Assembly (NCBI GenBank): GCA_022616555.1 | Contig: JAKEEG010000018.1 | Span: forward strand, 1 to 61,198 | Reading direction: 5' to 3' | Source: Ignavibacteriota bacterium | GTDB lineage: Bacteria > Bacteroidota > Ignavibacteria > UBA10030 | Length of the DNA stretch: 61,198 bases | Shown here: piece after piece, positions 4,299 to 26,162 of the stretch | Layout: each line of letters starts with the position of its first letter | Position numbering within the stretch: the stretch's first letter is position 1 | The notes under the pieces: model-generated | What the model saw: only the letters and a program-made list of their open reading frames with translations | Databases searched by the model: none | What the model was told of the DNA's origin: nothing | Position numbers and translations under genes: made by a program

Positions 4299-4338
4299 GT
4301 TTTTTGCTTTTTCATTTTTACTTTTGCATTTTTCATTG

Positions 4339-11891: not shown

Positions 11892-12347
11892 ATGACAACA
11901 AAACAAAAAACGACAACAGAAACCGAGCCATTCATAATCGAACGGACGTACGAAGCTCCGGTCGATTTGGTGTGGAAAGCCATCACTGAAAAAGAGCGGA
12001 TGAAGCAATGGTACTTCGACCTGAAGGAATTCAAGCCGGAGGTTGGGTTTGAATTTCAGTTTACAGGCGGAACGGAAGAGCGTCCATACCTCCATCTGTG
12101 CAAAGTGCTGGAAGTCGTGCCTCAGAAAAAGCTCAGCTATAGTTGGGTGTATGATGGTTACGAGGGATATTCAGTGGTTACGTTTGAGCTGTTTCCGGAA
12201 GGGCAAAAGACGCGATTGAGACTAACGCATACAGGACTGGAGACATTCCCGGCAAGCAATCCGGACTTAGTGAGGAAGAATTTTGTGGATGGCTGGACAT
12301 CGCTCATCGGCGAATCTCTCAAGAGTTTTCTGGAAAAAACAACGTAA
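11892..12347 (+). CDS. SRPBCC (AHSA1-like) domain protein
   Basis: A second START-fold protein of 151 residues, related in type to 11202-11741 but clearly diverged. IERTYEAPVDLVWKAITEKERMKQWYFDL near residues 16-44, LSYSWVYDGYEG near 80 and FVDGWTSLIGESLKSFLE at the end mark the family. A Shine-Dalgarno AAGGAAG lies in front of ATG 11892. It is separated from the upstream SRPBCC gene by the triple-hairpin repeat, so it may have its own promoter, though I see no clear one. Ligand unknown. Confidence 0.88.
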   Translation: MTTKQKTTTETEPFIIERTYEAPVDLVWKAITEKERMKQWYFDLKEFKPEVGFEFQFTGGTEERPYLHLCKVLEVVPQKKLSYSWVYDGYEGYSVVTFELFPEGQKTRLRLTHTGLETFPASNPDLVRKNFVDGWTSLIGESLKSFLEKTT

Positions 12348-12375
12348 AACCGCTTATTTTCTTAATAATTCCTTA

Positions 12376-12404
12376 TGTCGATTCGGCGCTTGCCGAATCG
12401 ACTA
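12376..12404 (+). promoter_or_regulatory. ECF42-type promoter, copy 1 (TGTCGA-N17-CGACTA)
   Basis: TGTCGA at 12376-12381, spacer 17, CGACTA at 12399-12404. It matches the ECF42 target promoter described in Streptomyces (TGTCGA -35, CGAC-type -10), and three identical pairs occur at 14045, 14589 and 21617. Here the whole core is also a perfect 11-bp inverted repeat (GTCGATTCGGC-GCTT-GCCGAATCGAC). A near copy of its right half (GCCGAATTGACTAATTTA, 12457-12474) follows. The next gene, encoding a DGPF protein, begins 104 nt downstream. Confidence 0.8.
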
Positions 12405-12508
12405 TTTTATATAGAGCCTATGGTGAAATACGTACAGTTGATAGAATACCAGTTGTGCCGAATTGACTAATTTACAATATTGACCCTCCACAAAATAAGG
12501 AATCAGTC

Positions 12509-12877
12509 ATGAAATACCTGTGCCTTGCCTACGAGGAAGAACATGTACTCAACGCGCTTTCCAAAAGTGATTGGGATTCGTTGAGGAAAGAGACACTGAC
12601 GTACGTCGGCGAGCTCCAAAAAAGCGGCGTGCTGTTAGCCGCAGAGCCGTTGCAAAGTGTCAAGACCGCCACAACGGTGCGTGTGCGGAATAAGAAAGTT
12701 GCCATCACGGACGGACCGTTTGCGGAGACGAAGGAAACGCTCGGCGGGTTTTTCATCATCGACGTAAAAAACTTAGACGAGGCAATTAACATTGCCTCTA
12801 AGTGGCCCTCTGCGCGGCTGGGCAGCATCGAAGTGCGTCCGCTCGAAAAAGAGTTGAGAGAGGAGAAGAGGTACTAG
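12509..12877 (+). CDS. YCII/DGPF domain protein
   Basis: A small dimeric ferredoxin-like barrel protein (PF03795), 122 residues. It opens MKYLCLAYEEE, and the name-giving motif TDGPFAETKE starts at residue 67, followed by GGFFIIDVKNLDEA and IEVRPL. Biochemical role is not known for this family; DGPF proteins are the usual genomic partners and targets of ECF42 sigma factors. It is preceded by an ECF42-type promoter and its stop codon overlaps the GTG start of the next gene by one base, which suggests translational coupling. It is one of five DGPF genes in the island. Confidence 0.93.
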   Translation: MKYLCLAYEEEHVLNALSKSDWDSLRKETLTYVGELQKSGVLLAAEPLQSVKTATTVRVRNKKVAITDGPFAETKETLGGFFIIDVKNLDEAINIASKWPSARLGSIEVRPLEKELREEKRY

Positions 12878-13608
12878 TGCCATCAAAAGCGGAGAACGCT
12901 CTCGCCGCCAAGCAGTTTATCGAGAAGCTCAAGAAACGCGCGACTGCGGCGGAGTTGAAAAAATACGAACGGTATTTTCCACCCGAGAAGCGCAACGGCG
13001 ACGTGTTCATCGGCGTGCGGATGGGGCATGTGTTTGAGTTGGCGAAGGAGTTTATCGACATGCCACCGGAAGAAATCGAAAAGCTCCTTGAAAGCAAGAT
13101 TCACGAGGTCCGGGCGGGTGCATGCAGCATCATGGGTAAGTCGGGATCCAGCAAGAAAACGCCGGAAAGCCGCGTCAACGAATTGTACGAGCTCTATATC
13201 CGCAGGCACGACAGGGTGAATAACTGGGATTTGGTTGACCTCGCCGCGCACCAGGTTGTGGGCAGATATCTTGCGGACAAGCCGCGCAAAATCCTTTACA
13301 CGCTCGCGCGCTCGAAGAACCAGTGGGAACGCCGGACGGCAATCATCAGCACAGCGCATTTTATCTGGAAGAAGGAAGTGGACGATGCACTCAAGATTGC
13401 TGAAATACTGGTTAGGGACAAGGAAGAGTTTGTCCAGAAAGCAGTCGGATGGATGCTGAGGTTTGTCGGCGACAAGGACAGAAAGCAACTGGTCGGATTT
13501 CTTGATAAACACGCCGCGAAGATGCCGAGAGTGATGTTGCGAAACAGCATCGAGCATTTTTCTAAGAAAGAATGGGAGCATTATCTGAGTTTGGGTAAAG
13601 AGGCATAA
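12877..13608 (+). CDS. DNA alkylation repair protein, AlkD-like HEAT-repeat glycosylase
   Basis: PF08713-type protein, 243 residues from GTG 12877; longer starts would lie inside the previous gene. A strong GAGGAGAAGAGG ribosome site precedes it. The all-helical HEAT-like repeats and the conserved NNWDLVDLAAHQVVG segment near residue 115, whose Trp and Asp line the active cleft in AlkD enzymes, support removal of alkylated bases. RAGACSIMGKS and NQWERRTAIIS are further family landmarks. It is coupled to the DGPF gene upstream and followed 5 nt later by a VOC gene, so DNA repair appears to be part of the ECF42-controlled response (inference). Confidence 0.9.
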   Translation: MPSKAENALAAKQFIEKLKKRATAAELKKYERYFPPEKRNGDVFIGVRMGHVFELAKEFIDMPPEEIEKLLESKIHEVRAGACSIMGKSGSSKKTPESRVNELYELYIRRHDRVNNWDLVDLAAHQVVGRYLADKPRKILYTLARSKNQWERRTAIISTAHFIWKKEVDDALKIAEILVRDKEEFVQKAVGWMLRFVGDKDRKQLVGFLDKHAAKMPRVMLRNSIEHFSKKEWEHYLSLGKEA

Positions 13609-13613
13609 GGACA

Positions 13614-14030
13614 ATGAGCATGAAACTCAAATCATCGATACCGACGTTGCCAGTGTATGATGTGAAAAAGGCCGTTGACTTCTACAAGAGTAAATTCGGT
13701 TTCTCGTGTCCGCATGAAGAGAAAACGTTCGCGCGGCTTGTCCGGGACGAGGTTGAGATTCACCTTTGGGCAGCGTGTAACGACCAATGGAAGTTGCGAA
13801 GTGTATTCCTGTTTCTAAAGCCCATCACGACCGGCGCGGAGAGCTTCCTCGTGGGGACGGCAAGCTGCCGAATAGAAGTAGAGACAATAGATGCACTATA
13901 TGAGGAGTATAAAAAGAGCGGCGTGCTGTACGATTCGAACACCGTGGTGGAGAAAACGACGTGGGGTACCCGGGAATTTGCCGCTCTGGATTTGCACCGG
14001 AACTTGTTGACGTTTTACGAACGTGTGTAA
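13614..14030 (+). CDS. VOC family protein, bleomycin-resistance-like
   Basis: Glyoxalase/bleomycin-resistance fold, 138 residues. IPTLPVYDVKKAVDFYKSKFGF opens the first beta-alpha-beta-beta-beta unit, and IHLWAACND and FAALDLHRNLLTFYER fit the small antibiotic-binding branch of the fold. No full set of metal ligands is evident, so a binding role (sequestering a toxic compound) is as likely as catalysis. It starts 5 nt after the AlkD-like gene with AAGG in front and closes the three-gene unit led by the ECF42-type promoter at 12376. Confidence 0.85.
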   Translation: MSMKLKSSIPTLPVYDVKKAVDFYKSKFGFSCPHEEKTFARLVRDEVEIHLWAACNDQWKLRSVFLFLKPITTGAESFLVGTASCRIEVETIDALYEEYKKSGVLYDSNTVVEKTTWGTREFAALDLHRNLLTFYERV

Positions 14031-14044
14031 TTTCAAACAACAAA

Positions 14045-14073
14045 TGTCGAATTGTTAACCAGCCAAACGACTA
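14045..14073 (+). promoter_or_regulatory. ECF42-type promoter, copy 2 (TGTCGA-N17-CGACTA)
   Basis: TGTCGA at 14045-14050 and CGACTA at 14068-14073, spacer exactly 17. It begins 15 nt after the VOC stop and lies 47 nt before the ATG of the small membrane protein. The spacer is unrelated to those of the other copies, so conservation is limited to the two hexamers. Confidence 0.8.
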
Positions 14074-14120
14074 AAGGGAAACAAGCTAATTATTAATCGA
14101 ACACATAAGGAGGAGCATTT

Positions 14121-14531
14121 ATGTCAAGCACGTTAAAAAGCATCGGCGCAGTCCTGGCTGGCTTCGTCTTTATCGGTATTACGCACACAGCAACGGACGC
14201 CATACTTGAAAGCAATGGTGTGCTGCCGAAGGGTCATCTTTATGTCAGCACGGGGCTTATTCTGTTCGTGCTTGGATATCGTGCTGTATGGAGCCTTGTC
14301 GGTTGTTATTTGACTGCACGCCTTGCGCCCAATCGCCCGCTCCGGCACGCGCTCATTGTGGGCGGAATCGGCGCCGTATTAAGCGCTGGAGCTGCTGTAG
14401 CGACAGCTGATATGAACTTAGGCCCGGGATGGTACGTTTGGACGCTTGCGGCGATTTCCCTGCCGGTTTCATGGCTCGGCGGAAAACTGTACGAGCGGCA
14501 AGCCAGCCGCGCGGCCGCTGAAACAAAATAA
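14121..14531 (+). CDS. small four-helix membrane protein
   Basis: It has 136 residues, with hydrophobic stretches near residues 5-22, 40-62, 75-97 and 103-120, separated by short polar loops. The C-terminus KLYERQASRAAAETK is charged and probably cytoplasmic. I do not recognise a named family. A strong AAGGAGGAG ribosome site lies 8 nt before ATG 14121. It has its own ECF42-type promoter, so it is a likely single-gene member of that regulon. A role in the envelope is inference only. Confidence 0.8.
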   Translation: MSSTLKSIGAVLAGFVFIGITHTATDAILESNGVLPKGHLYVSTGLILFVLGYRAVWSLVGCYLTARLAPNRPLRHALIVGGIGAVLSAGAAVATADMNLGPGWYVWTLAAISLPVSWLGGKLYERQASRAAAETK

Positions 14532-14551
14532 AATTTTCGGGGCTGTACTGC

Positions 14552-14567
14552 TGACATAGGGTTGTCA
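14552..14567. promoter_or_regulatory. inverted repeat TGACA-N6-TGTCA, possible operator
   Basis: TGACA-TAGGGT-TGTCA lies 22 nt upstream of the ECF42-type promoter copy 3. Its symmetry and spacing look like the site of a dimeric regulator. Nothing in the window shows which protein would bind. Confidence 0.35.
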
Positions 14568-14588
14568 CAAGCCTGCCGTATATTAACA

Positions 14589-14617
14589 TGTCGATTTTAG
14601 GGTATGCCCCTCGACTA
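14589..14617 (+). promoter_or_regulatory. ECF42-type promoter, copy 3 (TGTCGA-N17-CGACTA)
   Basis: TGTCGA at 14589-14594 and CGACTA at 14612-14617 with a 17-nt spacer. The ATG of the flavoprotein gene follows 42 nt downstream. Confidence 0.8.
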
Positions 14618-14659
14618 TAGTAAAAGGGGCTATTTATTCATCAGTTGAGTATCAAGATC

Positions 14660-16060
14660 ATGTCTGAGAAAAGAAATATCGTTCAAACAGAATTACTCAA
14701 GGCGTTAGGTTCCTTCAACGGAAAAGTTATCCTGCCGGAAAATGCGGAATATGACAAATCACGCGCGCTGTATTACGGCTGGATTGACCGCCGCCCCGCG
14801 GCAATTGTGCGGGTGGCGGACGCGCAGGACGTCTCCCGTCTCATTACTCTCGCACGGGAAAATGGAGTCCGGCTTGCAGTACGAGGCGGTGGCCATAGCG
14901 CCGCCGGTCACAGTGTGGTTGACGACGGAATTGTGCTCGACCTATCCGGAATGAACAAGCTCGATATCGATGTCAAAAACCGCACAGCGTGGGCAGAAGC
15001 CGGTTTGACGACGGGGCAATACACCGTTGCGACGGGGGAGCACGGCTTAGCGACAGGCTTCGGCGATGCCGGGTCGGTTGGCCTTGGCGGAATTACGTTG
15101 GGCGGTGGCGTTGGATTTTTAGTCCGCAAGCACGGGTTGACCATCGACAGCCTGCTCGAGGCGGAGATTGTCACAGCAGACGGCAAACTCCTCCGTGTAA
15201 ACTACGAGACGAACCCGGATCTTTTCTGGGCGATTCGTGGCGGCGGTGGCAACTTCGGTGTAGCGACGAGATTCAAATTCCAACTTCACGATGTCGGAAA
15301 CGTTCTTGGCGGCATTTTAATTCTCCCAGCGACAGCAGAAGTGATACAATCGTTTATCGCTCTAGCGGAAGCTGCACCGGAGGAATTATCGGTAATCGTG
15401 AATATCATGACCGCGCCGCCGATGCCGTTTATTCCTCAGGAATACCACGGGAAGCCAGTCGTGATGGCGATGATGGTCTATACCGGCGCTGTAGAAGCGG
15501 GTGAACGTGTCGTGGCGCCGTTCCGGGCGCTTGCAAAACCGATTGCGGACATGGTTCGCCCGATGCGTTATCCCCAGATGTACGAGGGCGAGGGTCCCCA
15601 TCCTACAGCGGCGTCGTTTCGAAATATGTTTATCGACCGCGTTGACCGACGTACGGCTGAGGCAATTATGGATAATCTCAAAGCCTCAAAGGCTTCGATG
15701 GCAGTGGCACAGCTACGTGTATTAGGCGGGGCGATGGCTCGTGTGCCCAACGACGCGACGGCATTCGCGTATCGAACCAGAAAAATTATGGTCAACGTTG
15801 CCTGCTTGTACGAGCGTCCGCAAGATTCCCCGCAGCATGATGAGTGGGTGAAACGGTTCTCATCGGCTCTCGATCAAGGCAACGCAGGCGTGTATGTCAA
15901 TTTTCTCGGTGACGAGGGCGAGGCTCGCATCCGCGAAGCGTACCCCGGCAGGACGTGGGAACGTTTGGCAGAGGTTAAAGACAAGTATGACCCGACGAAC
16001 TTTTTCAGGCTGAATCAGAATATCCAGCCGGCGGACGGGCAAGTGAAGAACGTTTCATAA
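14660..16060 (+). CDS. FAD-dependent oxidoreductase, berberine-bridge-enzyme type
   Basis: It has 466 residues from ATG 14660 (a TTG at 14645 is a weaker alternative). The FAD_binding_4 domain carries RGGGHSAAGHS near residues 76-86, whose first His is the usual covalent FAD attachment point. GGITLGGGVGFLVRKHGLTIDSL near 150 lacks the second Cys of bicovalent enzymes. The C-terminal BBE motif YVNFLGDEGEARIREAY and YDPTNFFRLNQNI is intact. It oxidises an unknown small molecule with oxygen as acceptor. No signal peptide. It follows an ECF42-type promoter and is followed by a DUF998 gene after 38 nt. Confidence 0.92.
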   Translation: MSEKRNIVQTELLKALGSFNGKVILPENAEYDKSRALYYGWIDRRPAAIVRVADAQDVSRLITLARENGVRLAVRGGGHSAAGHSVVDDGIVLDLSGMNKLDIDVKNRTAWAEAGLTTGQYTVATGEHGLATGFGDAGSVGLGGITLGGGVGFLVRKHGLTIDSLLEAEIVTADGKLLRVNYETNPDLFWAIRGGGGNFGVATRFKFQLHDVGNVLGGILILPATAEVIQSFIALAEAAPEELSVIVNIMTAPPMPFIPQEYHGKPVVMAMMVYTGAVEAGERVVAPFRALAKPIADMVRPMRYPQMYEGEGPHPTAASFRNMFIDRVDRRTAEAIMDNLKASKASMAVAQLRVLGGAMARVPNDATAFAYRTRKIMVNVACLYERPQDSPQHDEWVKRFSSALDQGNAGVYVNFLGDEGEARIREAYPGRTWERLAEVKDKYDPTNFFRLNQNIQPADGQVKNVS

Positions 16061-16098
16061 CGAAGAGGATTGTGATACACAAAAACGGAGTGGAATCC

Positions 16099-16758
16099 AT
16101 GACAACGAACAACACACAACCGATTTCAAAACTTCTCTTGGCGGGTGTAGTCGCGGGACCCTTTTTCATCGTCCTCGCGCTCGTGCAAGCTTTTCTGCGC
16201 GAAGGGTTTGACCCCGTACGGCATCCGGCGAGTTTGCTTTCGCTCGGTGATTTCGGTTTTGTGCAAATTGCAAATTTTGTGATAACCGGTGGACTGTTCA
16301 TCGCGTGCGCTACAGGAATTAAGCGTGTACTGACCGAAGGTATTGGCAGAACGTGGGTGTCCAGAATGTTTATACTTGTCGGGATTGGATTTATTATGGG
16401 TGGTGTATTTGTTGCCGACCCGGCGCTCGGTTTTCCGCCGGGAACGCCAGAAGGCATAGCACAGAATATGAGCGTGAGTGCCATCATACACGGATTTGCG
16501 CCCATTATCGGTTCGCTGGCGATGTCGGCCGCGCTAATTATCCTTGCGCGTCGGTCGTGGAGATCGGGGAACCGAGGTGCAGCAGGTGTGTCGATTCTCG
16601 TCGTCGTTGTTTCTTTTATACTCAACACAATTCCACAAGCAACCGCCGATTGGGAAAAGGGCATATTTAATTTTGTTCCATTGTGGATTGGAGTTACATT
16701 GCTTTATACCTATCCCGCTGTGTATCTTACAAGGTGGAAAGCGGAACTAAATCGTTGA
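16099..16758 (+). CDS. DUF998 family membrane protein
   Basis: It has 219 residues with about six transmembrane helices. The N-terminal LLLAGVVAGPFFIVLALVQAF and the loop REGFDPVRHPASLLSLGDFGFVQIANF (near residues 34-60) are the hallmark of DUF998 proteins. Function unknown. The start is ATG 16099 with GGAG upstream; the frame is open 27 nt further. It is probably cotranscribed with the flavoprotein and may be the membrane member of an exported or detoxified compound pathway (inference). Confidence 0.85.
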   Translation: MTTNNTQPISKLLLAGVVAGPFFIVLALVQAFLREGFDPVRHPASLLSLGDFGFVQIANFVITGGLFIACATGIKRVLTEGIGRTWVSRMFILVGIGFIMGGVFVADPALGFPPGTPEGIAQNMSVSAIIHGFAPIIGSLAMSAALIILARRSWRSGNRGAAGVSILVVVVSFILNTIPQATADWEKGIFNFVPLWIGVTLLYTYPAVYLTRWKAELNR

Positions 16759-16821
16759 GCATCAAGTTGCTCAAATTGTCAATTACTTATTTTAGAATTG
16801 TTTTTATGAGAGGATTTACCA

Positions 16822-18261
16822 ATGGGTGAAGCAGAGGTAGAAGTGACCCGAGATAATCAAACGGTGCAGTCGTCCGCACAGTCCCTTTGGCAGCAACTGA
16901 GGGACGCCATCCGCGGCACAGAAGCCGACTATACGCAAATCGGCCTCGGTAAGGCGGTGTTCTTGCTGGCTGTGCCGATGATTTTAGAATTGATCATGGA
17001 GTCCACATTTGCCGTGGTGGACATATATTTTGTCGGTACGCTCGGCGCGTCTGCTGTGGCGACTGTCGGGTTGACGGAAACGTATATGTTTCTGTTGTAT
17101 TCCATCGCGATGGGTATGACGATGGCTATTACCGCCATCATCGCAAGGCGTATCGGTGAAAAAGAGAAAGAGCAAGCTGGTATCAGTGCTGTCCAGGCAA
17201 TCTTCATCGCCTCACTGCTTTCGCTGCCGTTTGCGTTCGCCGGTATTTTCTTTGCCCAGGATTTGCTTGCGTTAATGGGTGCAGACGAGTGGACACTCCA
17301 GTACGGGTACCGCTATATGCAGTGGATGATGGGCGGTAACATCGTTATCGTGTTACTGTTTACGATCAACGCGATCTTCCGCGGGGCTGGCGATGCAGCA
17401 ATGGCTATGCGCGTGCTGTGGCTTGCAAACGGGCTGAACATGATTCTCGACCCCGTGCTGATCTACGGCTGGGGGCCGTTTCCCGAGTTGGGGATCCAGG
17501 GCGCAGCCATCGCCACGAATATCGGCAGGGGCATTGCCGTATTGACACAACTGTGGGTGTTGTTCAACGGCGGCAAGCATATCCGCGTGCTGCGCTCGCA
17601 TTTGCGCATAGACAAAGAAATCATCGCCAATATCATCCGCACGTCGTTGGGCGGTATCGGCCAGATGATTATTGCGATGACGTCGTGGATCTTCGTGATG
17701 CGGATTATCGCCGAGTTCGGCAGCCAGGCTGTAGCCGGAGCGACGATTGCGTTGAGGATTATGATGTTCACCTTGATGCCTGCGTGGGGTATGTCGAACG
17801 CAGTGGCGACGCTCGTCGGCCAGAACCTCGGTGCGCAGAGGCCGGATCGTGCTGAGCGCTCTGTGTGGATAACCGGTTTTTGGAATATGCTCTTTCTTAT
17901 CGGCGTCGCGGTGCTCTATTTCTTAAACGGCGAAAATCTGGTGGGCATTTTCAGCGACGACGCAGAGGTGATTGAGATCGGCGCAATGTGGCTCACCATC
18001 GTTTCGTATTCGTATTTCGTGTACGGATGGTGGATGGTGTCCGTGCAGGCATTCAACGGCTCAGGCGATACGGCTACTCCGACAAAAATCAACCTTGTGT
18101 TCTTCTGGCTTATCCAGATTCCTCTGGCGTATCTCTTGGGAAAAGAGCTTGGGTACGGTTACGCTGGCGTGTTCTGGGCAATTTTTGTCTCAGAAACCGC
18201 TGTGGGGTTATTCACACTGTGGCTGTTCACAAAAGGCACATGGAAGGCCGTAAAGGTATAA
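16822..18261 (+). CDS. MATE family efflux transporter
   Basis: A cation-antiport multidrug exporter of 479 residues with twelve hydrophobic helices in two homologous halves. The first helix begins near residue 48 (VFLLAVPMILELIMESTFAVVDIYFVGTLG), with the first-half loop IIARRIGE and the second-half SNAVATLVGQNLGAQRPDRAE typical of MatE domains. A 40-residue polar N-terminal extension comes before the first helix. GAGAGGA precedes ATG 16822. Its place among detoxification genes suits drug or metabolite efflux; substrates are unknown. Confidence 0.92.
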   Translation: MGEAEVEVTRDNQTVQSSAQSLWQQLRDAIRGTEADYTQIGLGKAVFLLAVPMILELIMESTFAVVDIYFVGTLGASAVATVGLTETYMFLLYSIAMGMTMAITAIIARRIGEKEKEQAGISAVQAIFIASLLSLPFAFAGIFFAQDLLALMGADEWTLQYGYRYMQWMMGGNIVIVLLFTINAIFRGAGDAAMAMRVLWLANGLNMILDPVLIYGWGPFPELGIQGAAIATNIGRGIAVLTQLWVLFNGGKHIRVLRSHLRIDKEIIANIIRTSLGGIGQMIIAMTSWIFVMRIIAEFGSQAVAGATIALRIMMFTLMPAWGMSNAVATLVGQNLGAQRPDRAERSVWITGFWNMLFLIGVAVLYFLNGENLVGIFSDDAEVIEIGAMWLTIVSYSYFVYGWWMVSVQAFNGSGDTATPTKINLVFFWLIQIPLAYLLGKELGYGYAGVFWAIFVSETAVGLFTLWLFTKGTWKAVKV

Positions 18262-18305
18262 GATTGTTGGCGAATCATTTTTCTCAACAAAGGAGCTGAC
18301 GCGCC

Positions 18306-18680
18306 ATGGCAAAAACAAATTTCCAAACAATCGATGAGTACATCGATACGTTTCCGAAAGACAAGCAGGCGGTGCTGAGAAAGTTGAGAGGAGCGATCAG
18401 GTCAGCGGCCCCAAAAGCCACCGAAGGAATCAGTTATCAAATTCCGACGTACTTTCTGAACGGAAAGTACGTCGTCTATTTCGCCGGTTTTAAAAACCAC
18501 GTCAGCGTCTATCCGGCGAAGGCAACAGCAGTTGCAAAAGTCAAAGGCTTATCGGCCTATAAAGTGTCAACCGGAACCTTAAAGTTTCCGCTCGATAAAC
18601 CGATTCCCTTGGGACTGATTAAAAAGTTTGTGAGCTACCGAATGAAGGAAAGTAGGGAGAGGGAAAAAGCAAAAAAGTAG
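18306..18680 (+). CDS. DUF1801 (YdhG-like) protein
   Basis: It has 124 residues. TIDEYIDTFPKDKQAVLRKLRGAIRSAAPKATEGISYQIPTYF is the classic beginning of DUF1801, and FPLDKPIPLGLIKKFVSYRMKE its end. Relatives have been called iron-chaperone-like, but the biochemical role is uncertain. AAAGGAG lies 9 nt before ATG 18306. A second, diverged DUF1801 gene is at 23158. Confidence 0.9.
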   Translation: MAKTNFQTIDEYIDTFPKDKQAVLRKLRGAIRSAAPKATEGISYQIPTYFLNGKYVVYFAGFKNHVSVYPAKATAVAKVKGLSAYKVSTGTLKFPLDKPIPLGLIKKFVSYRMKESREREKAKK

Positions 18681-18696
18681 ATACATCGGTGCAGTT

Positions 18697-19074
18697 ATGA
18701 ACGGGCATATCTATTTTGAAATCCAGGCTGACGATACGCGTCGGGCAATTAGTTTTTATCGAAAAGTATTCGGATGGCAATTCACCGAAGCTCCGGGACT
18801 TCCGGTAGAATATTGGCGGATTGAAACAGGAGGCAATGCTGGCGGATTGCTCAAGCGTCCGGCGAAATCCCCGCCGCCCGAAAGCGGCACGAACGCGTTC
18901 GTATGCTCTCTTGAAGTCGAGAGCTTTGACGAAACAGCCCGGAAGATTGCCAGCGCTAAAGGACAAATTGCCCTCCCAAAATTTGCAGTGCCAGGAACAT
19001 GCTGGCAGGGGTACTTTATCGATACCGAAGGCAACACGTTTGGGATTTTTGAAGTCGATGAGAATGCTAAATAA
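18697..19074 (+). CDS. VOC family (glyoxalase-like) protein
   Basis: It has 125 residues with two beta-alpha-beta-beta-beta units. HIYFEIQADDTRRAISFYRKVFGWQF is the first, with His 4 and later GNTFGIFEVDE carrying the Glu expected for metal binding in this group. It resembles the CFP32-type hydroxylase/glyoxalase-like branch, though the substrate is unknown. It begins 16 nt after the DUF1801 gene, so they share an operon. Confidence 0.88.
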   Translation: MNGHIYFEIQADDTRRAISFYRKVFGWQFTEAPGLPVEYWRIETGGNAGGLLKRPAKSPPPESGTNAFVCSLEVESFDETARKIASAKGQIALPKFAVPGTCWQGYFIDTEGNTFGIFEVDENAK

Positions 19075-19097
19075 CATTTTCTTCATAGGAGCTAGCC

Positions 19098-19562
19098 ATG
19101 CAAAAAATTTCAACGTTTTTATGGTTCGATAAGGAGGCGAGTGCAGCCGCGAAGTTTTATACGACCGTGTTCAAGGGTTCGAAGATAACAGACACAACAA
19201 TCCTTGAGAACACCCCCTCCGGCACAGTCGAGGTGGTCACCATGAACATCCTTGGTCAGGAGTTCCAGCTGATGAGCGCGGGGCCGTACTTCAAGATCAA
19301 CGAAGCAATTTCATTCGTGGTGAACTGCAAGACGCAGAAGGAGATCGATTACTACTGGAATAAACTCTCCGCCGACCCGAAAGCGGAACAATGCGGCTGG
19401 CTCAAAGATAAGTTCGGTGTCTCGTGGCAGATCGTTCCGACGGTGATGTATAAGATGCAAAAGAGCAAGGACAAGCAGAAACTGGCGCGGTTCACCGAGG
19501 CATTCCTCAAGATGAAAAAATTCGACATCAAAGAACTCCAGCGGGCATTTGACGGAAAGTAA
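19098..19562 (+). CDS. VOC family protein, PhnB / 3-demethylubiquinone methyltransferase-like
   Basis: It has 154 residues. ISTFLWFDKEASAAAKFYTTVFKGSKI, FQLMSAGPYFKINEAISFVVNC and CGWLKDKFGVSWQIVP are the standard PF06983 landmarks. Despite the database name, methyltransferase activity is not expected: there is no SAM site. AGGAG precedes ATG 19098. It is the third gene of the DUF1801-VOC-VOC unit, which ends at a strong terminator. Confidence 0.9.
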   Translation: MQKISTFLWFDKEASAAAKFYTTVFKGSKITDTTILENTPSGTVEVVTMNILGQEFQLMSAGPYFKINEAISFVVNCKTQKEIDYYWNKLSADPKAEQCGWLKDKFGVSWQIVPTVMYKMQKSKDKQKLARFTEAFLKMKKFDIKELQRAFDGK

Positions 19563-19594
19563 CGAGGTAACAAAAACATAATACACGCGTATCG

Positions 19595-19625
19595 AAAAGG
19601 GCGCATTATATGCGCCCTTTTGTAT
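19595..19625 (+). terminator. strong terminator before the sigma factor gene
   Basis: AAAAGGGCGCAT-TAT-ATGCGCCCTTTT is a 12-bp perfect stem with a U-rich tail (TTTTGTATTT). It insulates the sigma factor gene from upstream transcription. Confidence 0.85.
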
Positions 19626-19773
19626 TTCTCCCCGCCTTGTAATCTCCAACCATAATTCGTAGATTAAAAGCCCATCCTAACGTGAGTGCGTAGTATGTGC
19701 GGACGGATACCCGAATATCATTGTTGTTTAGGGTTATTCAGCGTTACAATCAGTTATAGACATCTCTCTACGA

Positions 19774-21042
19774 ATGAGTCAGGCAACTAAACCGGTTCAC
19801 GAGATTGTGGACGCCGTTTATCGTTCCGAGTCTCGCCGCATACTTGCGACGTTGATTCGCTTGCTCGGCGATTTTGAAATCGCAGAGGAGGCGATGCACG
19901 ACGCCTTTGCGGCCGCTGTGGAGCAATGGCCCCGGGAGGGTGTGCCCACCAACCCGCGCGCGTGGCTTGTCTCTACTGGCAGGTTTAAGGCCATCGACGG
20001 AATTCGCCGGCAGGCGCGGTTTGTCTCGGATGGACCTTCCGGCGACGGCATGATGACCGAGCTCGCGGATCGGCTCGCTGCAGAAACAGAGGACATTGCG
20101 GAGAAGCTTGATGAGAGCGTGGAAGACGACCGTCTGCGGTTGATCTTCACCTGCTGTCACCCGGCACTTGCGCCGGATGCGCGTATGGCGCTGACGCTGC
20201 GCGAAGTTTGCGGGTTGACGACTGAGGAAATAGCCCGAGCATTTCTTACGTCCCCAGCAACGCTCGCACAACGTATCGTGCGCGCGAAAACAAAAATCCG
20301 CGATGCGCGCATTCCTTACCAAGTGCCATCGCAATCCGAGCTGCCAGAGCGGTTGGAGACGGTGCTGCATGTCGTATATCTCATGTTCAATGAAGGGTAT
20401 TCTGCTTCGTCCGGTAATTCTCTCACGCGAGCCGACATCTCTGGCGAAGCAATTCGCCTCGGCCGGCTGCTACTCGAATTGCTGCCTGAGCCGGAAGTGA
20501 CCGGATTGCTTGCGCTGATGCTGCTGCAGGAATCGCGCCGGGCGGCACGGTCATCGCCTGACGGCGAGATTATCCTGTTAGACGACCAAGACCGTTCGCT
20601 CTGGAACAGGGAGTTCATTGCCGAAGGAACAGCACTCGTGCGACAAACGCTCATTACGCGTCGGGTCGGTCCTTATACGCTTCAAGCGGCGATTGCAGCG
20701 GTGCATGCAGAAGCCCAGACATCCTCGGCAACGGATTGGCAGCAAATTGTCGCATTGTATGATGTATTAGTGCAAATGATTCCCTCGCCAGTGGTTGAAT
20801 TGAACCGGGCCGCCGCTGTGGCGATGCGAGACGGTCCTGAGGCGGGGCTTGTGCTCATCGACGCACTGCTTGCGCGCGGCGAGTTGGACGAATATCATCT
20901 GGCGCATTCTGCGAGGGCAGAATTGTGTAGACGACTTGGCAGAAAGGATGACGCCCGCGTTTCCTTCGAACGCGCGCTCAATTTAACACAACAGGAACCA
21001 GAGAAGCGATTCCTTAAGCGAAGATTGGCGGAGTTGGCATAA
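19774..21042 (+). CDS. ECF42-type RNA polymerase sigma factor with C-terminal TPR-like extension
   Basis: It has 422 residues, about twice an ordinary ECF sigma factor. Sigma region 2 lies near residues 12-85 (FEIAEEAMHDAFAAAVEQWP, NPRAWLVSTGRFKAIDGIRRQ) and region 4 near 120-175 (TTEEIARAFLTSPATLAQRIVRAKTKIRDARIPY). A long helical extension with FNEGYSA, VELNRAAAVAMRDGPEAGL and HLAHSARAELCRRLGR follows. This architecture, without an anti-sigma gene nearby and with DGPF genes around it, is that of ECF42, where the extension is reported to be needed for activity. Four perfect ECF42-type promoters lie within about 8 kb. None lies directly before this gene. Confidence 0.93.
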   Translation: MSQATKPVHEIVDAVYRSESRRILATLIRLLGDFEIAEEAMHDAFAAAVEQWPREGVPTNPRAWLVSTGRFKAIDGIRRQARFVSDGPSGDGMMTELADRLAAETEDIAEKLDESVEDDRLRLIFTCCHPALAPDARMALTLREVCGLTTEEIARAFLTSPATLAQRIVRAKTKIRDARIPYQVPSQSELPERLETVLHVVYLMFNEGYSASSGNSLTRADISGEAIRLGRLLLELLPEPEVTGLLALMLLQESRRAARSSPDGEIILLDDQDRSLWNREFIAEGTALVRQTLITRRVGPYTLQAAIAAVHAEAQTSSATDWQQIVALYDVLVQMIPSPVVELNRAAAVAMRDGPEAGLVLIDALLARGELDEYHLAHSARAELCRRLGRKDDARVSFERALNLTQQEPEKRFLKRRLAELA

Positions 21043-21060
21043 ACAAACGATCTTGGTAGC

Positions 21061-21135
21061 CGCAGGCTTCAGCCTGCGTAGTTGAATTGGAATGATGAAA
21101 AAATAAACCACCCCGTCCCGCTAAAGCAGCGGGAC
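21061..21135. repeat. two dispersed hairpins between sigma factor and DGPF gene
   Basis: CGCAGGCT-TC-AGCCTGCG (21061-21078) and GTCCCGCT-AAAGC-AGCGGGAC (21115-21135) are perfect 8-bp stems of two different dispersed repeat types. They separate the sigma factor gene from the following DGPF gene and may act as attenuators. Confidence 0.6.
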
Positions 21136-21222
21136 ACCCTTCCTTCTTCAAGTAGGGGAAAAGCCCTCGTACCAATTTTGTTCCCCATTAGCACAGGGGG
21201 TTGTCAGTTGAAGGAGCACTTT

Positions 21223-21579
21223 ATGAAATACCTCTGCACCATATACATTGACGAGAAAAAGCTTGCCGCAATGTCCCAGAGCGACTATCAGGCAGTTGTT
21301 CAGCGATGTCTTGATTACGAAGACGAGCTCCGCGTATCGGGGCATATGATTGCCGCGGAGGCGCTAGAGCCCATTCACGCTGCCACGACTGTTCAGATGC
21401 GCGGAGGGAAAATGTCGGTAACCGACGGGCCCTTCGCGGAAACAAAGGAGCAACTCGTCGGATTCTTTATGATTAACGCGGGCAGCCAAGACGAAGCGGT
21501 CCGGATTGCCTCAAAAATGCCGCAGGCGCAGATTGGAAGCATAGAGGTGCGGCCTATCAAAGACCTCACCCAGCATTAA
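21223..21579 (+). CDS. YCII/DGPF domain protein
   Basis: It has 118 residues from ATG 21223, with AAGGAG 7 nt upstream; the longer frame from 21082 covers the hairpin repeats and is not likely. The protein opens MKYLCTIYIDEKKLA, carries TDGPFAETKEQL near residues 67-78, and ends IGSIEVRPI. It lies 180 nt behind the ECF42 sigma gene in the same direction, matching the reported ecf42-DGPF gene pair. Role unknown; a dimeric ferredoxin-like barrel is expected. Confidence 0.93.
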   Translation: MKYLCTIYIDEKKLAAMSQSDYQAVVQRCLDYEDELRVSGHMIAAEALEPIHAATTVQMRGGKMSVTDGPFAETKEQLVGFFMINAGSQDEAVRIASKMPQAQIGSIEVRPIKDLTQH

Positions 21580-21616
21580 GCCTCAAAAAAATCCCTAAAA
21601 AATTGGGCGTTTGGGA

Positions 21617-21645
21617 TGTCGATTTCGGCATCCCCTGCACGACTA
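21617..21645 (+). promoter_or_regulatory. ECF42-type promoter, copy 4 (TGTCGA-N17-CGACTA)
   Basis: TGTCGA at 21617-21622 and CGACTA at 21640-21645, spacer 17. GGGATG and CATCCC around TCGATTTCGG add a partial hairpin. The next DGPF gene begins 52 nt downstream and leads a tight run of genes to 23571. Confidence 0.8.
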
Positions 21646-21697
21646 TTTAGTAGACGAACAATTCCATCTCTAACATTTTTTGAGAGGAGATACGACA

Positions 21698-22129
21698 ATG
21701 AAATTCGCCGTGTTTGTGAAAGCTACGAAGGATTCTGAAGCCGGCATCCTGCCAAGTGAGCAGATGTTTGCCGAGATGATGAAATACAATGAAGAATTGT
21801 CAAAGGCGGGTATTATACTTGCCGGAGACGGGCTTCAACCCAGCTCGAAGGGCGTGCGCGTGAAGTTCTCCAGCACGAAGCGTATAGTAACCGATGGCCC
21901 CTTCACGGAAACCAAAGAGTTGGTCGCCGGGTACTGGATATGGGAGTGCAAATCCAAAGAAGAAGCGATTGAGTGGGTGAAGAAATGTCCCAACCCGATG
22001 CCGGGGGAGTCTGAGATAGAGATCCGTCCGATTTATGGCGCTGACGATTTGGGCGAGGGGTTTACTCCTGAATTGCAGGATAAATGGCAACAAATTAAAG
22101 CTGAAGGCGAAGCGAGGCAAAAGAAGTAG
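21698..22129 (+). CDS. YCII/DGPF domain protein
   Basis: It has 143 residues from ATG 21698, with GAGAGGAG upstream. It opens MKFAVFVKATKDSEAG, with TDGPFTETKELVAGYWIWE near residues 67-85. Unlike the short DGPF proteins it has a C-terminal extension of about 30 charged residues ending EGEARQKK, which is the longer DGPF subtype. It is the first gene of the unit driven by the ECF42-type promoter at 21617. Confidence 0.93.
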   Translation: MKFAVFVKATKDSEAGILPSEQMFAEMMKYNEELSKAGIILAGDGLQPSSKGVRVKFSSTKRIVTDGPFTETKELVAGYWIWECKSKEEAIEWVKKCPNPMPGESEIEIRPIYGADDLGEGFTPELQDKWQQIKAEGEARQKK

Positions 22130-22179
22130 AGTTTATTCAAGTCAACAATACGTTGCACACATTTTTTTGGGGATACACA

Positions 22180-22578
22180 ATGAAATATATTTGCTTAGGA
22201 TATTACGATGAAAAAGCGTTCGGACAATTGTCAGAACAAGAGCGAACAGCGTTTATGGATGAGTGTTTTGTATACGATGATGTGCTCAAAAAAAACGGGC
22301 ACTATATCGGCGATGAGGCACTTCAGCTTGCGGAAACTGCCGCAACACTCCGGTACCAAAACGGCAAAGTTGCGATTACCGATGGCCCGTTTGCCGAAAC
22401 CAAGGAACAGTTGGGTGGAATACTCATTCTCGAAGCGAAGGACTTAAACCACGCCATTCAAATCATGTCGAAGCATCCGGGCGTGAAAGGCGGACCGTTT
22501 GAGATTCGCCCGGCGGCGGATTTGACGGAGCTGGTGAACGAAAGCGAGCGACGACGTTCTGTCGCTACGGAGAAATAA
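22180..22578 (+). CDS. YCII/DGPF domain protein
   Basis: It has 132 residues. It opens MKYICLGYYDEKAFG, with TDGPFAETKEQLGGILILE near residues 67-85 and GPFEIRPAADL near the end. It begins 50 nt after the previous DGPF gene, and its stop is one base before the next start, so the pair with the reductase-like gene is tightly coupled. Confidence 0.93.
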   Translation: MKYICLGYYDEKAFGQLSEQERTAFMDECFVYDDVLKKNGHYIGDEALQLAETAATLRYQNGKVAITDGPFAETKEQLGGILILEAKDLNHAIQIMSKHPGVKGGPFEIRPAADLTELVNESERRRSVATEK

Positions 22579-22579
22579 C

Positions 22580-23143
22580 ATGCGAAAACTCATTATGTGG
22601 AATATGGTGACGCTCGATGGTTATTTCGAGGGTGAGAAAAAGTGGGATCTTGGCTTCCATGATCTTGTGTGGGGCAAGGAGCTTGAGGATTTTAGTATTG
22701 AACAATTAAAATCAGCCGACATGCTTGTCTTTGGTGAAACAACCTACAAAGGTATGGCAGATTATTGGACCAAAGCCGAAGGAGAGGAAGGGGAGATAGC
22801 GGCGTACATGAACAAAATTGCAAAGGTCGTCTGCTCCAAGACACTGCAAACCGCCGACTGGAACAACACAAAAATTGTGCGTGATGTAGTCGCCGAACTG
22901 TTGAAATTGAAGAAGAAAGGTGATGGGAATATGTTTGTGTTTGGAAGCGGCATTCTATCGGAATCTCTCATGAAAGCGAACCTCTTTGATGAATATCGTT
23001 TGTGCGTCGTTCCCGTCTTTCTCGGGAAGGGCGGACACTTGTTCAATGAAGGTTTACCATTTCAAAAATTAAAATTGCTTGAAGCGCGTCCACTGCAAAC
23101 CAGAGGCGTGATACTTCGTTACGTGCCAGAGAGCAAAGCGTAA
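22580..23143 (+). CDS. dihydrofolate reductase family protein (RibD C-terminal fold)
   Basis: PF01872-type protein, 187 residues. KLIMWNMVTLDGYFEG opens it; ADMLVFGETTYKGMADYW and FVFGSGILSESLMKANLFDEYRL mark the nucleotide-binding core. These proteins share the DHFR fold but are not known to reduce dihydrofolate. An NADPH-dependent reductase role is plausible, substrate unknown. It is one of five such genes in the island and is coupled to the DGPF gene upstream (1-nt gap). Confidence 0.9.
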   Translation: MRKLIMWNMVTLDGYFEGEKKWDLGFHDLVWGKELEDFSIEQLKSADMLVFGETTYKGMADYWTKAEGEEGEIAAYMNKIAKVVCSKTLQTADWNNTKIVRDVVAELLKLKKKGDGNMFVFGSGILSESLMKANLFDEYRLCVVPVFLGKGGHLFNEGLPFQKLKLLEARPLQTRGVILRYVPESKA

Positions 23144-23157
23144 TCAAGGTGGCGCAC

Positions 23158-23571
23158 ATGCCCAAGAGTAAACCCACATCAGTAACCGAGTATATCGAAA
23201 CCGCTCCGAAGGTAGCACAGAAGAAATTGCGTGAAATGCGCGCGATACTCAAAAAGATTGTGCCAAATGCGACAGAAACATTAAAATGGGGGTCGCCGGT
23301 GTTTGAGGAACGCCGAATCCTGTTTGCCTATGCGGCATTCAAGTCGCATCTCAACTTCATGCCGACTCATACAGCTCTGGAGCCTTTCAAAAAGGATCTG
23401 GCACAGTACGCTACGGGCAAGGACACGATTCAATTCCCATATGACAAACCGCTCCCGAAAACGCTCATCCGCAAAATTGCCGCTTACCGTGTCGAGGAAG
23501 TAAGAACTGGAGATGTGCGATGGTTTAAAGCGAAAAGGTCGGTTAAATCTAAATCGGTAAAAAAACGATAA
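23158..23571 (+). CDS. DUF1801 (YdhG-like) protein
   Basis: It has 137 residues from ATG 23158 with AAGGTGG upstream; a GTG at 23149 is possible. VTEYIETAPKVAQKKLREMRAILKKIVPNATETLKWGSPVF is the DUF1801 start, and IQFPYDKPLPKTLIRKIAAYR the end. A basic tail (KRSVKSKSVKKR) is added. It is diverged from 18306-18680. Gap of 14 nt to the reductase-like gene upstream. Confidence 0.88.
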   Translation: MPKSKPTSVTEYIETAPKVAQKKLREMRAILKKIVPNATETLKWGSPVFEERRILFAYAAFKSHLNFMPTHTALEPFKKDLAQYATGKDTIQFPYDKPLPKTLIRKIAAYRVEEVRTGDVRWFKAKRSVKSKSVKKR

Positions 23572-23609
23572 TAGGTAAAACGCCTACATCATTAAAGAAG
23601 GAGATTACC

Positions 23610-24506
23610 ATGATAGCAAGAATGTTTCGTGCAATGATTGTTACTCTCTGTGTTTGTACCGTCGCATCGGTCGCTGCTTTCACGCAGAGCAATGGCAAAT
23701 ATGTTAATGTCAACGGAATGAAGATGTATTATGAAGTGTCCGGCGAGGGCGATCCGCTTATTGTGCTGCACGGCGCTCATATGGATATCAAAACTATGGG
23801 CAAGATCATCCCCTTGCTGGCGGAAACTCACAAAGTCTATGCACTCGAATTCCAGGGTCACGGCAGCACAGAGGATATCGACAGGCCGATCACCTATCAG
23901 AATCTAGCCGATGATGTTGCCGCTTTCATGGATGCTGTAGGCCTCAAGAAAGCCGATGTATTCGGCTATTCTATGGGTGCCCAAGTAGGCCTTCAGCTTG
24001 CCATCCGCAATCCGGCAAAAGTAAACAAGCTCGTCTCTGCTTCAGCCTCCTACGACCTTAAAGGCTGGCAGCCGGTGTATAGTGAGCTTCTTCCGCAAAT
24101 GTCGGTGGAGATGTTTCTTGCCATGCCGTATTTCGCCGAGGTCAGCAAGAAATCGGGAAATCCAGAACGCTATGCCGCTTTCCTCAAGAAGATGATCGCG
24201 CTCGAGCACGAGCCAATGGCTTGGGAGGAGGATGTCAAAAAACTCAAAACCCCGGTATTAATTATTGCTGGAGATGCGGACGTAGCAACACTCGAACACA
24301 CTGTTTCCATGTTCCGGCTGCTCGGTGGCGGTGTCATGGGCGATATGGGCCGGCCTCTGCCCGCGTCGCGACTGGCCATCATGCCGGCGACGTCGCATAC
24401 CGCCGTCATCAGCCAGCCCGATTTGCTGATTTCGTTTATCGAACCTTTCTTGAAGGGCGAGACGCCGAAGGGGTTCTTTGATGCAGCGCCACCGGAAAAG
24501 AATTAG
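23610..24506 (+). CDS. secreted alpha/beta hydrolase (paralog 1)
   Basis: It has 298 residues. The signal peptide (about residues 1-26, ending VAAFTQS) indicates export. The alpha/beta hydrolase core has the oxyanion region VLHGAHMD, the nucleophile elbow GYSMG near residue 115, the acid in IIAGDAD, and the catalytic His in ATSHTAVI near residue 267. The substrate is unknown; the small size and the LHG/GHG pattern fit lactonase, esterase or peptidase relatives. It is very similar to the paralog at 25252, so this hydrolase and the following reductase form a duplicated module. AAGGAG precedes ATG 23610. Confidence 0.92.
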   Translation: MIARMFRAMIVTLCVCTVASVAAFTQSNGKYVNVNGMKMYYEVSGEGDPLIVLHGAHMDIKTMGKIIPLLAETHKVYALEFQGHGSTEDIDRPITYQNLADDVAAFMDAVGLKKADVFGYSMGAQVGLQLAIRNPAKVNKLVSASASYDLKGWQPVYSELLPQMSVEMFLAMPYFAEVSKKSGNPERYAAFLKKMIALEHEPMAWEEDVKKLKTPVLIIAGDADVATLEHTVSMFRLLGGGVMGDMGRPLPASRLAIMPATSHTAVISQPDLLISFIEPFLKGETPKGFFDAAPPEKN

Positions 24507-24600
24507 AAACCTAAATACATAGTAAGCGAGATTTGTATCGTAACAGAACCAATTTTGAAGAAGTTTTTGGAAGAATAAATTAGTCAGAAGGTGAAATACT

Positions 24601-25203
24601 ATGCGAAAAATAATCGTCCTATCATTCATTACATTAGATGGAGTTATGCAAGCACCGGGGGGACCCGACGAAGATACGTCAAGCGGCTTCACATATGGCG
24701 GTTGGACTGCGCCGTATTTTTACGAAGCTGACGAAGCGGCTGGTGAGCTCATGGCAAAACAAATGAAGTCTGCAGACCTTCTGTTGGGCAGGAAAACATT
24801 CGACATTTTTGCTGCCTACTGGCCTGAACATGCAGACATGTGGCCCGGTATCAATGACGTCACTAAATACGTCATGAGTGCTACCATGACCAAATCAGAT
24901 TGGAAAAATTCAGTTTTCTTGAAAAGCGTCGATGATATCAAGAAGCTCAAGAATTCAAAAGGTTCCGATATTCAAGTCCACGGGAGCGGTAACCTGGTCC
25001 AGACGCTCTTCAAACATGATCTGGTCGATGAGTTGTGGCTCAAAACATTCCCTGTCACGCTCGGTACGGGCAAGCGTTTGTTTGGTGAGGGCACCATTCC
25101 CGCGGCCTTTACAGTAACAGAGAGTTTGGTTACGTCAAACGGGGTGATTTTCGCCAATTACAAGCGAGCCGGAGAAGTCAAGACGGGTACTGTCGGAGCT
25201 TAA
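24601..25203 (+). CDS. dihydrofolate reductase family protein (RibD C-terminal fold)
   Basis: It has 200 residues. KIIVLSFITLDGVMQAPGGPDEDTS opens it, with ADLLLGRKTFDIFAAYWPEH and IQVHGSGNLVQTLFKHDLVDELWL in the core. It is strikingly close to 27130-27723: both begin with the same motif and end YKRAGEVKTGTVGA, and 31 bp of coding DNA near the 3' end are identical (25154-25184 and 27674-27704). The substrate is unknown. It pairs with the hydrolase upstream. Confidence 0.92.
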   Translation: MRKIIVLSFITLDGVMQAPGGPDEDTSSGFTYGGWTAPYFYEADEAAGELMAKQMKSADLLLGRKTFDIFAAYWPEHADMWPGINDVTKYVMSATMTKSDWKNSVFLKSVDDIKKLKNSKGSDIQVHGSGNLVQTLFKHDLVDELWLKTFPVTLGTGKRLFGEGTIPAAFTVTESLVTSNGVIFANYKRAGEVKTGTVGA

Positions 25204-25251
25204 GGAAATATAAGAAGCCCTTACGCTGATCTATAGTAAAGGAGGAAAGCC

Positions 25252-26142: not shown

Positions 26143-26162
26143 TTCATTTAAGGAGAAATATC

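What the first reader, a model, noticed from the sequence alone, without database searches (positions are those of the whole stretch)
12376..21645. Four perfect ECF42-type promoters define a sigma-factor regulon of DGPF, DNA-repair, flavoprotein and membrane genes
TGTCGA-N17-CGACTA occurs with both hexamers and the spacer length fully conserved at 12376, 14045, 14589 and 21617, each 42-104 nt before a gene on the same strand and all within 8 kb of an ECF42-type sigma gene (19774). Established knowledge: ECF42 in Streptomyces venezuelae uses TGTCGA / CGAC-type promoters and controls DGPF genes. New here: non-actinobacterial promoters are readable by eye, and the set adds an AlkD-like DNA repair gene with a VOC gene, a four-helix membrane protein and a BBE-type oxidase with DUF998. 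This suggests a response to a DNA-alkylating or electrophilic compound (inference).
Basis: partly seen in the sequence, partly recalled or inferred. Interest (0 to 1): 0.82.

Follow-up and report, generated by a model that had tools for sequence, protein, structure and literature searches.

The report
Sigma-factor regulon for toxin removal
A bacterial gene switch (an ECF42-type sigma factor) and its matching start signals probably control a set of small detoxification-type genes and drug-export pumps; the switch is a known kind, but the pumps look like a new part of its gene set.

Summary
The four TGTCGA-N17-CGACTA sites are real and very probably ECF42 promoters. The genome has six exact matches, four in this 9.3-kb cluster. 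Of 98 genomes in the order, 22 of 23 with a close sigma homologue have the motif, against 11 of 75 without. In 80 named ECF42 loci the exact motif is enriched at spacing 17 only. Spacer ends are conserved too; the window sites and a fifth site (C84) pass that test, the sixth (C21) fails. The fifth site precedes an OEP-MFP-RND efflux operon, as in two relatives; in three species of another genus a site precedes a MacAB-like operon; the BBE/DUF998 transcript probably includes a MATE exporter. Detoxification plus export fits better than DNA alkylation: no AlkD homologue was found in 102 other ECF42 stretches. Non-actinobacterial ECF42 promoters were already mapped in Sinorhizobium meliloti. Caveats: no expression data; 12376 also reads as a terminator hairpin; window sites score in the low part of the range; efflux sites number six, in three genera; P. 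putida ECF-10 loss reportedly raises resistance.

The parts
12376..12404 (+). ECF42-type promoter 1 (TGTCGA-N17-CGACTA) before the DGPF/AlkD/VOC transcript; the same bases form an 11-bp hairpin about 28 nt after the preceding AHSA1/SRPBCC gene (possible terminator/promoter overlap)
   Evidence: spacer score top 1.0% of window 17-mers; 26.2 bits; RNA fold z -4.25
12509..12877 (+). DGPF/YCII protein, PF03795
12877..13608 (+). AlkD-like DNA glycosylase (PF08713); GTG start (my choice) overlaps the preceding stop codon by 1 nt; residues aligned to AlkD W109, D113, R148, W187 are kept (numbering recalled)
   Evidence: (scanned from 12802)
13614..14030 (+). VOC/glyoxalase-fold protein, PF00903
14045..14073 (+). 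ECF42-type promoter 2
   Evidence: top 1.0%; 26.0 bits
14121..14531 (+). 136-aa probable membrane protein (by eye), no Pfam or NCBIfam match; homologues in 4 of 22 sigma loci of the order and 1 of 80 named loci
14589..14617 (+). ECF42-type promoter 3
   Evidence: top 0.8%; 26.9 bits
14660..16060 (+). FAD-linked BBE-type oxidoreductase (FAD_binding_4 + BBE)
   Evidence: NCBIfam BagK/FevA1 well below its cut-off
16072..16758 (+). DUF998 protein
16822..18261 (+). MATE-family efflux transporter (PF01554; TIGR00797 above cut-off)
18306..18680 (+). DUF1801 protein
18697..19074 (+). VOC/glyoxalase-fold protein
19098..19562 (+). PhnB-like VOC protein (PF06983)
19595..19621 (+). terminator-like hairpin, 12 bp, before the sigma gene; likely end of the promoter-3 transcript
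   Evidence: z -3.5
19774..21042 (+). ECF42-type sigma factor (sigma2, sigma4, DUF6596, weak TPR match); no ECF42-like site in the 300 nt upstream
21223..21579 (+). DGPF/YCII protein without an ECF42-like site upstream; spacer to the sigma gene consists largely of dispersed repeats
   Evidence: (scanned from 21217)
21617..21645 (+). ECF42-type promoter 4; its -35 half lies in a 9-bp hairpin
   Evidence: top 0.16%; 30.5 bits; z -2.5
21698..22129 (+). DGPF/YCII protein
   Evidence: scanned from 21695
22180..22578 (+). DGPF/YCII protein, 50-nt gap to the preceding gene
22580..23143 (+). RibD_C (dihydrofolate-reductase-like) protein
23149..23571 (+). DUF1801 protein

Best explanation
The four sites are promoters read by the ECF42 sigma factor encoded at 19774. 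Sigma4 reads TGTCGAWTT and sigma2 reads RWWCGACTA at a fixed 17-nt spacing. They start four transcripts: DGPF-AlkD-VOC; a small membrane protein; BBE oxidase-DUF998-MATE-DUF1801-VOC-PhnB; and DGPF-DGPF-RibD-DUF1801. A fifth copy elsewhere in the genome (contig C84) starts an OEP-MFP-RND efflux operon. Shown: the sites, their conservation, their spacing, their co-occurrence with the sigma gene, and the genes behind them. Inferred: transcription itself, which sigma domain reads which half, the operon ends, and the physiology. No anti-sigma family was recognised among the genes scanned; from reviews of ECF42, the TPR extension is expected to control activity through a partner protein, possibly a DGPF/YCII protein. 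The most likely role is response to a toxic small molecule: modify it (VOC, RibD-like, BBE; alpha/beta hydrolases in relatives) and export it (MATE, RND-OEP; MacAB-like in relatives).
For: Chance excluded. In 80 named ECF42 loci (1.45 Mb) the exact motif occurs 45 times in 36 loci at N17, against 7 times in all at N12-16 and N18-22, and once over all spacings in one shuffle. In 98 genomes of the order: 22 of 23 genomes with a sigma of at least 68% identity have it against 11 of 75 without; Fisher p 9e-13, phylogeny not corrected. There are 50 sites in those 23 genomes (reversed-pattern control 6) and 13 in the 75 others (control 14). In the 44 sites (43 distinct) of 21 other sigma genomes, T at position 8 is 44 of 44 and purine at position 21 is 44 of 44; the four window sites and C84 fall in about the top 1% of window 17-mers or better, C21 at 32%. 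With the full matrix the window sites score 26.0-30.5 and the next best window place 13.1. Of the 44 sites, 39 precede a same-strand frame that matches a reference family (23 DGPF, 6 RibD, 3 hydrolase, 1 DUF998, 1 PhnB, 2 OEP, 3 MacA); of the other 5, Pfam gives one AHSA1 and two DoxX_2, one looks like the AHSA1 case by eye and one is cut by a contig end. In six genera outside the order (Pseudomonas, Stutzerimonas, Halomonas, Nitrosospira, Zhongshania, Parapedobacter) 17 of 18 sites examined score 19.5-38.1 on the same matrix, one 1.5.
Against: No expression data. The window sites lie in the low part of the range: training sites run 23.5-40.4 with median 35.6. Site 12376 is also a terminator-like hairpin and lies 104 nt from its gene, and C84 lies 272 nt from its gene (24 of the 44 sites lie 30-60 nt away, by mechanical start codons). 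One sigma genome of the order (G074, 70% complete) has no exact site, nor have 44 of the 80 named loci and 2 of 13 further named genomes. The looser pattern TGTCGA-CG[AT]C is highest at N17 (98) but also exceeds the single shuffle at several other spacings, e.g. N15 (41 against 8). DGPF 21223, beside the sigma gene, lacks a site. Loss of P. putida ECF-10 (ECF42) is reported to raise antibiotic resistance 2-4 fold (review PMC4613276, passage), opposite to a simple 'sigma turns on export' model. Efflux sites are few: 3 of 6 sigma-bearing genomes with the OEP orthologue, two of them one genus. MATE, BBE and DUF998 homologues occur in 3, 2 and 1 of 22 order loci and in none of the 80 named loci.
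Confidence: 0.85

Rival explanations
1. The motif is an inverted-repeat operator (GTCG-N18-CGAC) or a hairpin/terminator, not a promoter.
For: GTCG and CGAC are reverse complements; 12376 is a perfect 11-bp hairpin with a T-rich tail; 21617 overlaps another hairpin, z -2.5, 4 of 200 shuffles folding as well. Terminator-like patterns are in excess in 12300-26200 (27, shuffles 16.3 +- 4.6).
Against: Over 70 distinct sites, paired positions inside the core do not covary: Watson-Crick fractions are at or below expectation at all 8 position pairs tested. Of 70 sites, 36 have no extra pair and only 12376 has more than 3. The 14045 and 14589 sites show no significant fold (z 0.07, -0.79), and the 21617 hairpin does not pair the two hexamers with each other.
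Confidence: 0.07
2. Promoters are real but read by another regulator; the sigma gene is only a neighbour.
For: No direct binding or transcription data; the genome holds a 41%-identity ECF42 paralogue and two weak ECF-like matches (C85, C53, C8).
Against: The motif follows the sigma across 98 genomes and lies beside ECF42 genes in several phyla. The paralogue has a different site, TGTCCT-N17-CGTCAT, before its own YCII gene. The motif resembles the ECF42 promoters reported in S. meliloti.
Confidence: 0.06
3. The regulon answers DNA-alkylating agents.
For: An AlkD-like gene that keeps four active-site residues (recalled numbering) sits in the promoter-1 transcript.
Against: No AlkD homologue in the stretches held for 80 named and 22 order ECF42 loci; efflux genes of two operon types stand directly behind sites and a MATE gene lies in the inferred promoter-3 transcript.
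Confidence: 0.12

Closest known systems
ECF42 regulons of Streptomyces venezuelae (Sven_0747, Sven_4377, Sven_7131; Liu et al. 2018, not held and not read, cited through passages of the review PMC8999054)
   Same: ECF sigma with a C-terminal TPR extension and YCII-domain neighbours; TGTCGA/CGAC-type promoters (recalled)
   Different: Different phylum; here -10 is CGACTA with conserved spacer ends, and MATE and RND efflux genes lie behind the promoter; whether the Streptomyces regulons hold efflux genes I could not check
RpoE10 of Sinorhizobium meliloti (ECF42; PMC6180224, passages)
   Same: TPR extension, YCII gene next to it, glyoxalase-like and hydrophobic-ligand-binding targets, 17-nt spacing (my count), first gene of its own operon not induced
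   Different: TGTCGG / CGTC hexamers; a motif is present before its own operon (overlapping the start site), none here; two target operons raised 2-fold or more, no efflux among them in the passages seen
ECF-10 (PP4553) of Pseudomonas putida (review passages)
   Same: ECF42, linked to antibiotic susceptibility
   Different: Deletion raises resistance; -10 varies in Pseudomonas: CGACCA in L107 and L115, CGACTA in others such as L094

Membership tests
ECF42 sigma factor | sigma2 and sigma4 domains (no sigma3 match) | tested here: met
   PF04542 at 16-82, PF08281 at 124-175
ECF42 sigma factor | about 200-residue C-terminal extension with TPR | tested here: met
   422 aa; DUF6596 at 193-292; TPR_2 at 376-405 with 23.6 bits, below the cut-off of 27
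ECF42 sigma factor | DGPF/YCII genes in the neighbourhood | tested here: met
   four YCII genes in 12509-22578, all with TDGPF
ECF42 sigma factor | TGTCGA / CG[AT]C promoter with 17-nt spacing before target genes | tested here: met
ECF42 sigma factor | no cognate anti-sigma gene nearby | tested here: inconclusive
   none recognised by Pfam among the genes scanned; the 14121 protein has no known family
ECF42 sigma factor | TPR extension needed for activity; promoter start sites | not testable with these tools
   needs experiment
AlkD DNA glycosylase | active-site Trp, Asp, Arg, Trp (AlkD W109, D113, R148, W187, recalled) | tested here: met
   alignment to 5cl4_A (E 1.2e-5): WDLVD, RRTA and GWML positions
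Multidrug RND efflux operon (C84) | outer-membrane factor, membrane-fusion protein and RND permease side by side on one strand | tested here: met
   OEP, HlyD_D23 and ACR_tran; NCBIfam RND_permease_2 at 1151.7 bits, below its cut-off of 1250

The most novel reading that the evidence does not exclude
In this bacterial order a branch of ECF42 sigma factors has become a master switch for toxic-compound clearance that couples small detoxification-type enzymes to drug export (MATE, RND-OEP, MacAB-like), the RND and MacAB-like operons having been recruited in different genera. A second ECF42 paralogue in the same genome is insulated from it by another promoter (TGTCCW-N17-CGTCAT).
Probability: 0.4. 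Interest if true: 0.66.

Novelty: new member of a known kind. Interest (0 to 1): 0.5.

Why it matters
ECF42 sigma factors occur in many phyla, and what their DGPF targets do is, as far as I know, unknown. A regulon that places them with export pumps gives a testable direction (toxic small molecules). A promoter consensus with conserved spacer ends, which held in this order and in 17 of 18 sites checked in six genera outside it, helps to read such regulons from genome sequence alone.

Tried and rejected
Relaxed matching (up to 2 mismatches) gives no clear excess over control. The C21 site was set aside as chance: inside an ORF and a bad spacer. The dyad/hairpin reading was rejected for the set by lack of covariation, but is open for 12376. 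A genome-wide count of the paralogue's motif TGTCCW-N17-CGTCAT shows 53 sites against 34 for the control in 98 genomes; what speaks for it is its place before class-B YCII genes (3 of 7 loci), and one more site about 530 nt before a class-B sigma match (G078; not looked at further). Sigma70-like promoters in 12300-26200 are at chance (13 seen, 13.0 expected). Plasmid search with promoter-1 transcript DNA: no match. Literature: the listings and the passages seen showed no link of ECF42 to efflux operons; several listed papers were not opened and the main ECF42 papers are not held, so this is weak. Gene picking by longest ORF was misled by antisense frames; one search replaced it. The downstream genes of 7 of the 13 sites in sigma-less genomes (G004, G024, G008, G029, G079, G085, one of G040) were not examined.
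Full report
What is there. The window carries exactly four copies of TGTCGA-N17-CGACTA on the + strand, at the stated places (shuffles 0.01). In the 2.99-Mb draft genome there are six, and none of the reversed control. With two mismatches allowed, counts do not exceed the control, so the exact motif carries the signal.

Who reads it. The gene at 19774-21042 is an ECF sigma factor with DUF6596 and a weak TPR match in its C-terminal extension, surrounded by four YCII/DGPF genes. Relatives of up to 74% identity in named genomes occur in very different phyla (the best 80 of at least 580 are kept). In these 80 loci the exact motif occurs 45 times in 36 loci at spacing 17, against seven times in all at the ten other spacings tried; the looser TGTCGA-CG[AT]C is also highest at 17 (98) but is above the single shuffle at several spacings. 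Three of the named genomes (L057, L059, L091) are also members of the order: one search gives the site coordinates of G054, G086 and G023. So the two data sets overlap by three. L091 is 'Ignavibacteria bacterium RIFCSPLOWO2_12_FULL_56_21', and its counterpart G023 is in the window's own family, which is the best hint to where the window comes from.

Presence test. In 98 genomes of the order, 23 have a sigma of 68% identity or more; 22 of these have the exact motif. The exception, G074, is 70% complete. Of the 75 others 11 have it. Among these 11, G055 keeps a sigma fragment beside a site and a DGPF gene, G063 has a well-scoring site near a contig end before a DGPF gene, and G088 two well-scoring sites before AHSA1-like and DGPF genes. 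G040, with only a 38%-identity paralogue, has one middling site before a DGPF gene and one poor one. The sites of the other seven genomes have spacer scores of -3.8 or lower. The Fisher p of 9e-13 does not correct for shared ancestry.

The spacer is informative. From the 44 sites of the 21 other motif-bearing sigma genomes, position 7 is A/T in 43, position 8 is T in 44, position 21 is a purine in 44, position 22 is A/T in 42 and position 23 is A/T in 41. Scored on the 17 spacer bases alone, the window sites fall in the top 1.01%, 0.98%, 0.76% and 0.16% of window 17-mers and C84 in the top 0.016%; C21 is at 32%. The window scores (2.5-7.0) are low within the set: with each genome left out in turn, 32 of the 44 score above 7, and three fall below zero. 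A full matrix gives 26.2, 26.0, 26.9 and 30.5 for the window sites (training 23.5-40.4, median 35.6) and 13.1 for the next best place. It transfers to 17 of 18 sites examined in Pseudomonas, Stutzerimonas, Halomonas, Nitrosospira, Zhongshania and Parapedobacter (19.5-38.1; one at 1.5). Genes behind those sites include YCII, DUF1428, DUF899, SnoaL, GST, AHSA1 and RibD_C.

What it controls. In this genome: promoter 1, DGPF-AlkD-VOC; promoter 2, a small membrane protein; promoter 3, BBE oxidase-DUF998-MATE-DUF1801-VOC-PhnB, closed by a terminator-like hairpin at 19595-19621; promoter 4, DGPF-DGPF-RibD-DUF1801. Operon extents are inferred from strand and short gaps. The C84 site lies 272 nt before an outer-membrane factor, followed by a membrane-fusion protein and an RND permease. 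In G041 and G046 the site lies 4 and 52 nt before the orthologue (mechanical start codons; the G046 gene appears split over two contigs, C23 and C24). An orthologue of that outer-membrane factor is found in 23 of 98 genomes at E 1e-100: exact site before it in 3 of 6 with the sigma and 0 of 17 without (p 0.011; two of the three are one genus). G018 has a degenerate copy 47 nt before its gene (14.9 bits). In G045, G086 and G087, all of one genus, a site lies 149-192 nt before a MacA-like adaptor, with an ABC ATPase; two permeases follow in G086 (MacB_PCD and FtsX by Pfam) and, by resemblance, in G087. MATE homologues occur in 3 of 22 sigma loci of the order and 0 of 80 named loci; I found no site directly before them. 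The AlkD gene has no homologue in those 102 stretches.

How it probably works. The sigma gene has no ECF42-like site in the 300 nt upstream (best score -13.3). For S. meliloti RpoE10 the first gene of its operon was not induced either, although a motif lies there. Activity is then likely set by the C-terminal extension; reviews describe it as essential and suggest control by a protein partner, with YCII proteins named as candidates (passages). That step is literature plus inference.

Two ECF42 types in one genome. The paralogue on C85 (41% identity) has TGTCCT-N17-CGTCAT 49 nt before its YCII gene, and TGTCCA-N17-CGTCAT lies 45-46 nt before YCII genes in G006 and G059: 3 of 7 class-B loci examined. 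In those loci TGTC and CGTCAT stand at this spacing three times, once at another spacing and not at nine others. Class A (77 sequences) and class B (7) differ in sigma2 (positions 67-71, S-GRF against mostly AKN at 69-71) and in sigma4 (165-169, AQRIV against KRL at 166-168), the regions expected to read -10 and -35 (general knowledge).

Against. Site 12376 is the weakest case: it folds as an 11-bp hairpin (z -4.25) 28 nt after a stop codon and stands 104 nt before its gene. It may be a terminator, a promoter, or both. Site 21617 overlaps a different hairpin (z -2.5). The P. putida ECF-10 phenotype (review passage) runs against simple activation of export. In the 13 named genomes that are outside the order, 11 have an exact match (25 sites); no efflux gene was the first gene behind the 18 sites examined.

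Verdict.

Noticed in passing
window 21043-21215: The spacer between the sigma gene and DGPF 21223 consists largely of dispersed repeats (24 matches in the own genome, itself included). In relatives such as L225, L141, L138 and L137 a CGACTA site directly follows the sigma gene; here that promoter may have been displaced.
   Followed up: partly
window 12455-12469: A partial second copy of the promoter's 3' half (GTGCCGAATTGACTA) without a recognisable -35 lies 39 nt before DGPF 12509.
   Followed up: no
L193 (G055:C2), 2605-5062: A genome that seems to have lost most of its ECF42 sigma gene (72% identical fragment in a longer, apparently chimeric frame) keeps a high-scoring site and DGPF genes.
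   Followed up: partly
L037 5870-5898 (G000:C85:23869): Class-B ECF42 paralogue with its own promoter type TGTCCT-N17-CGTCAT before a YCII gene; a DUF1761 gene lies downstream.
   Followed up: partly
L099, L107, L115 and others: Some ECF42 loci carry -10 CGACCA instead of CGACTA: 13 CGACCA against 23 CGACTA hits of the strict pattern in the 80 named loci.
   Followed up: no
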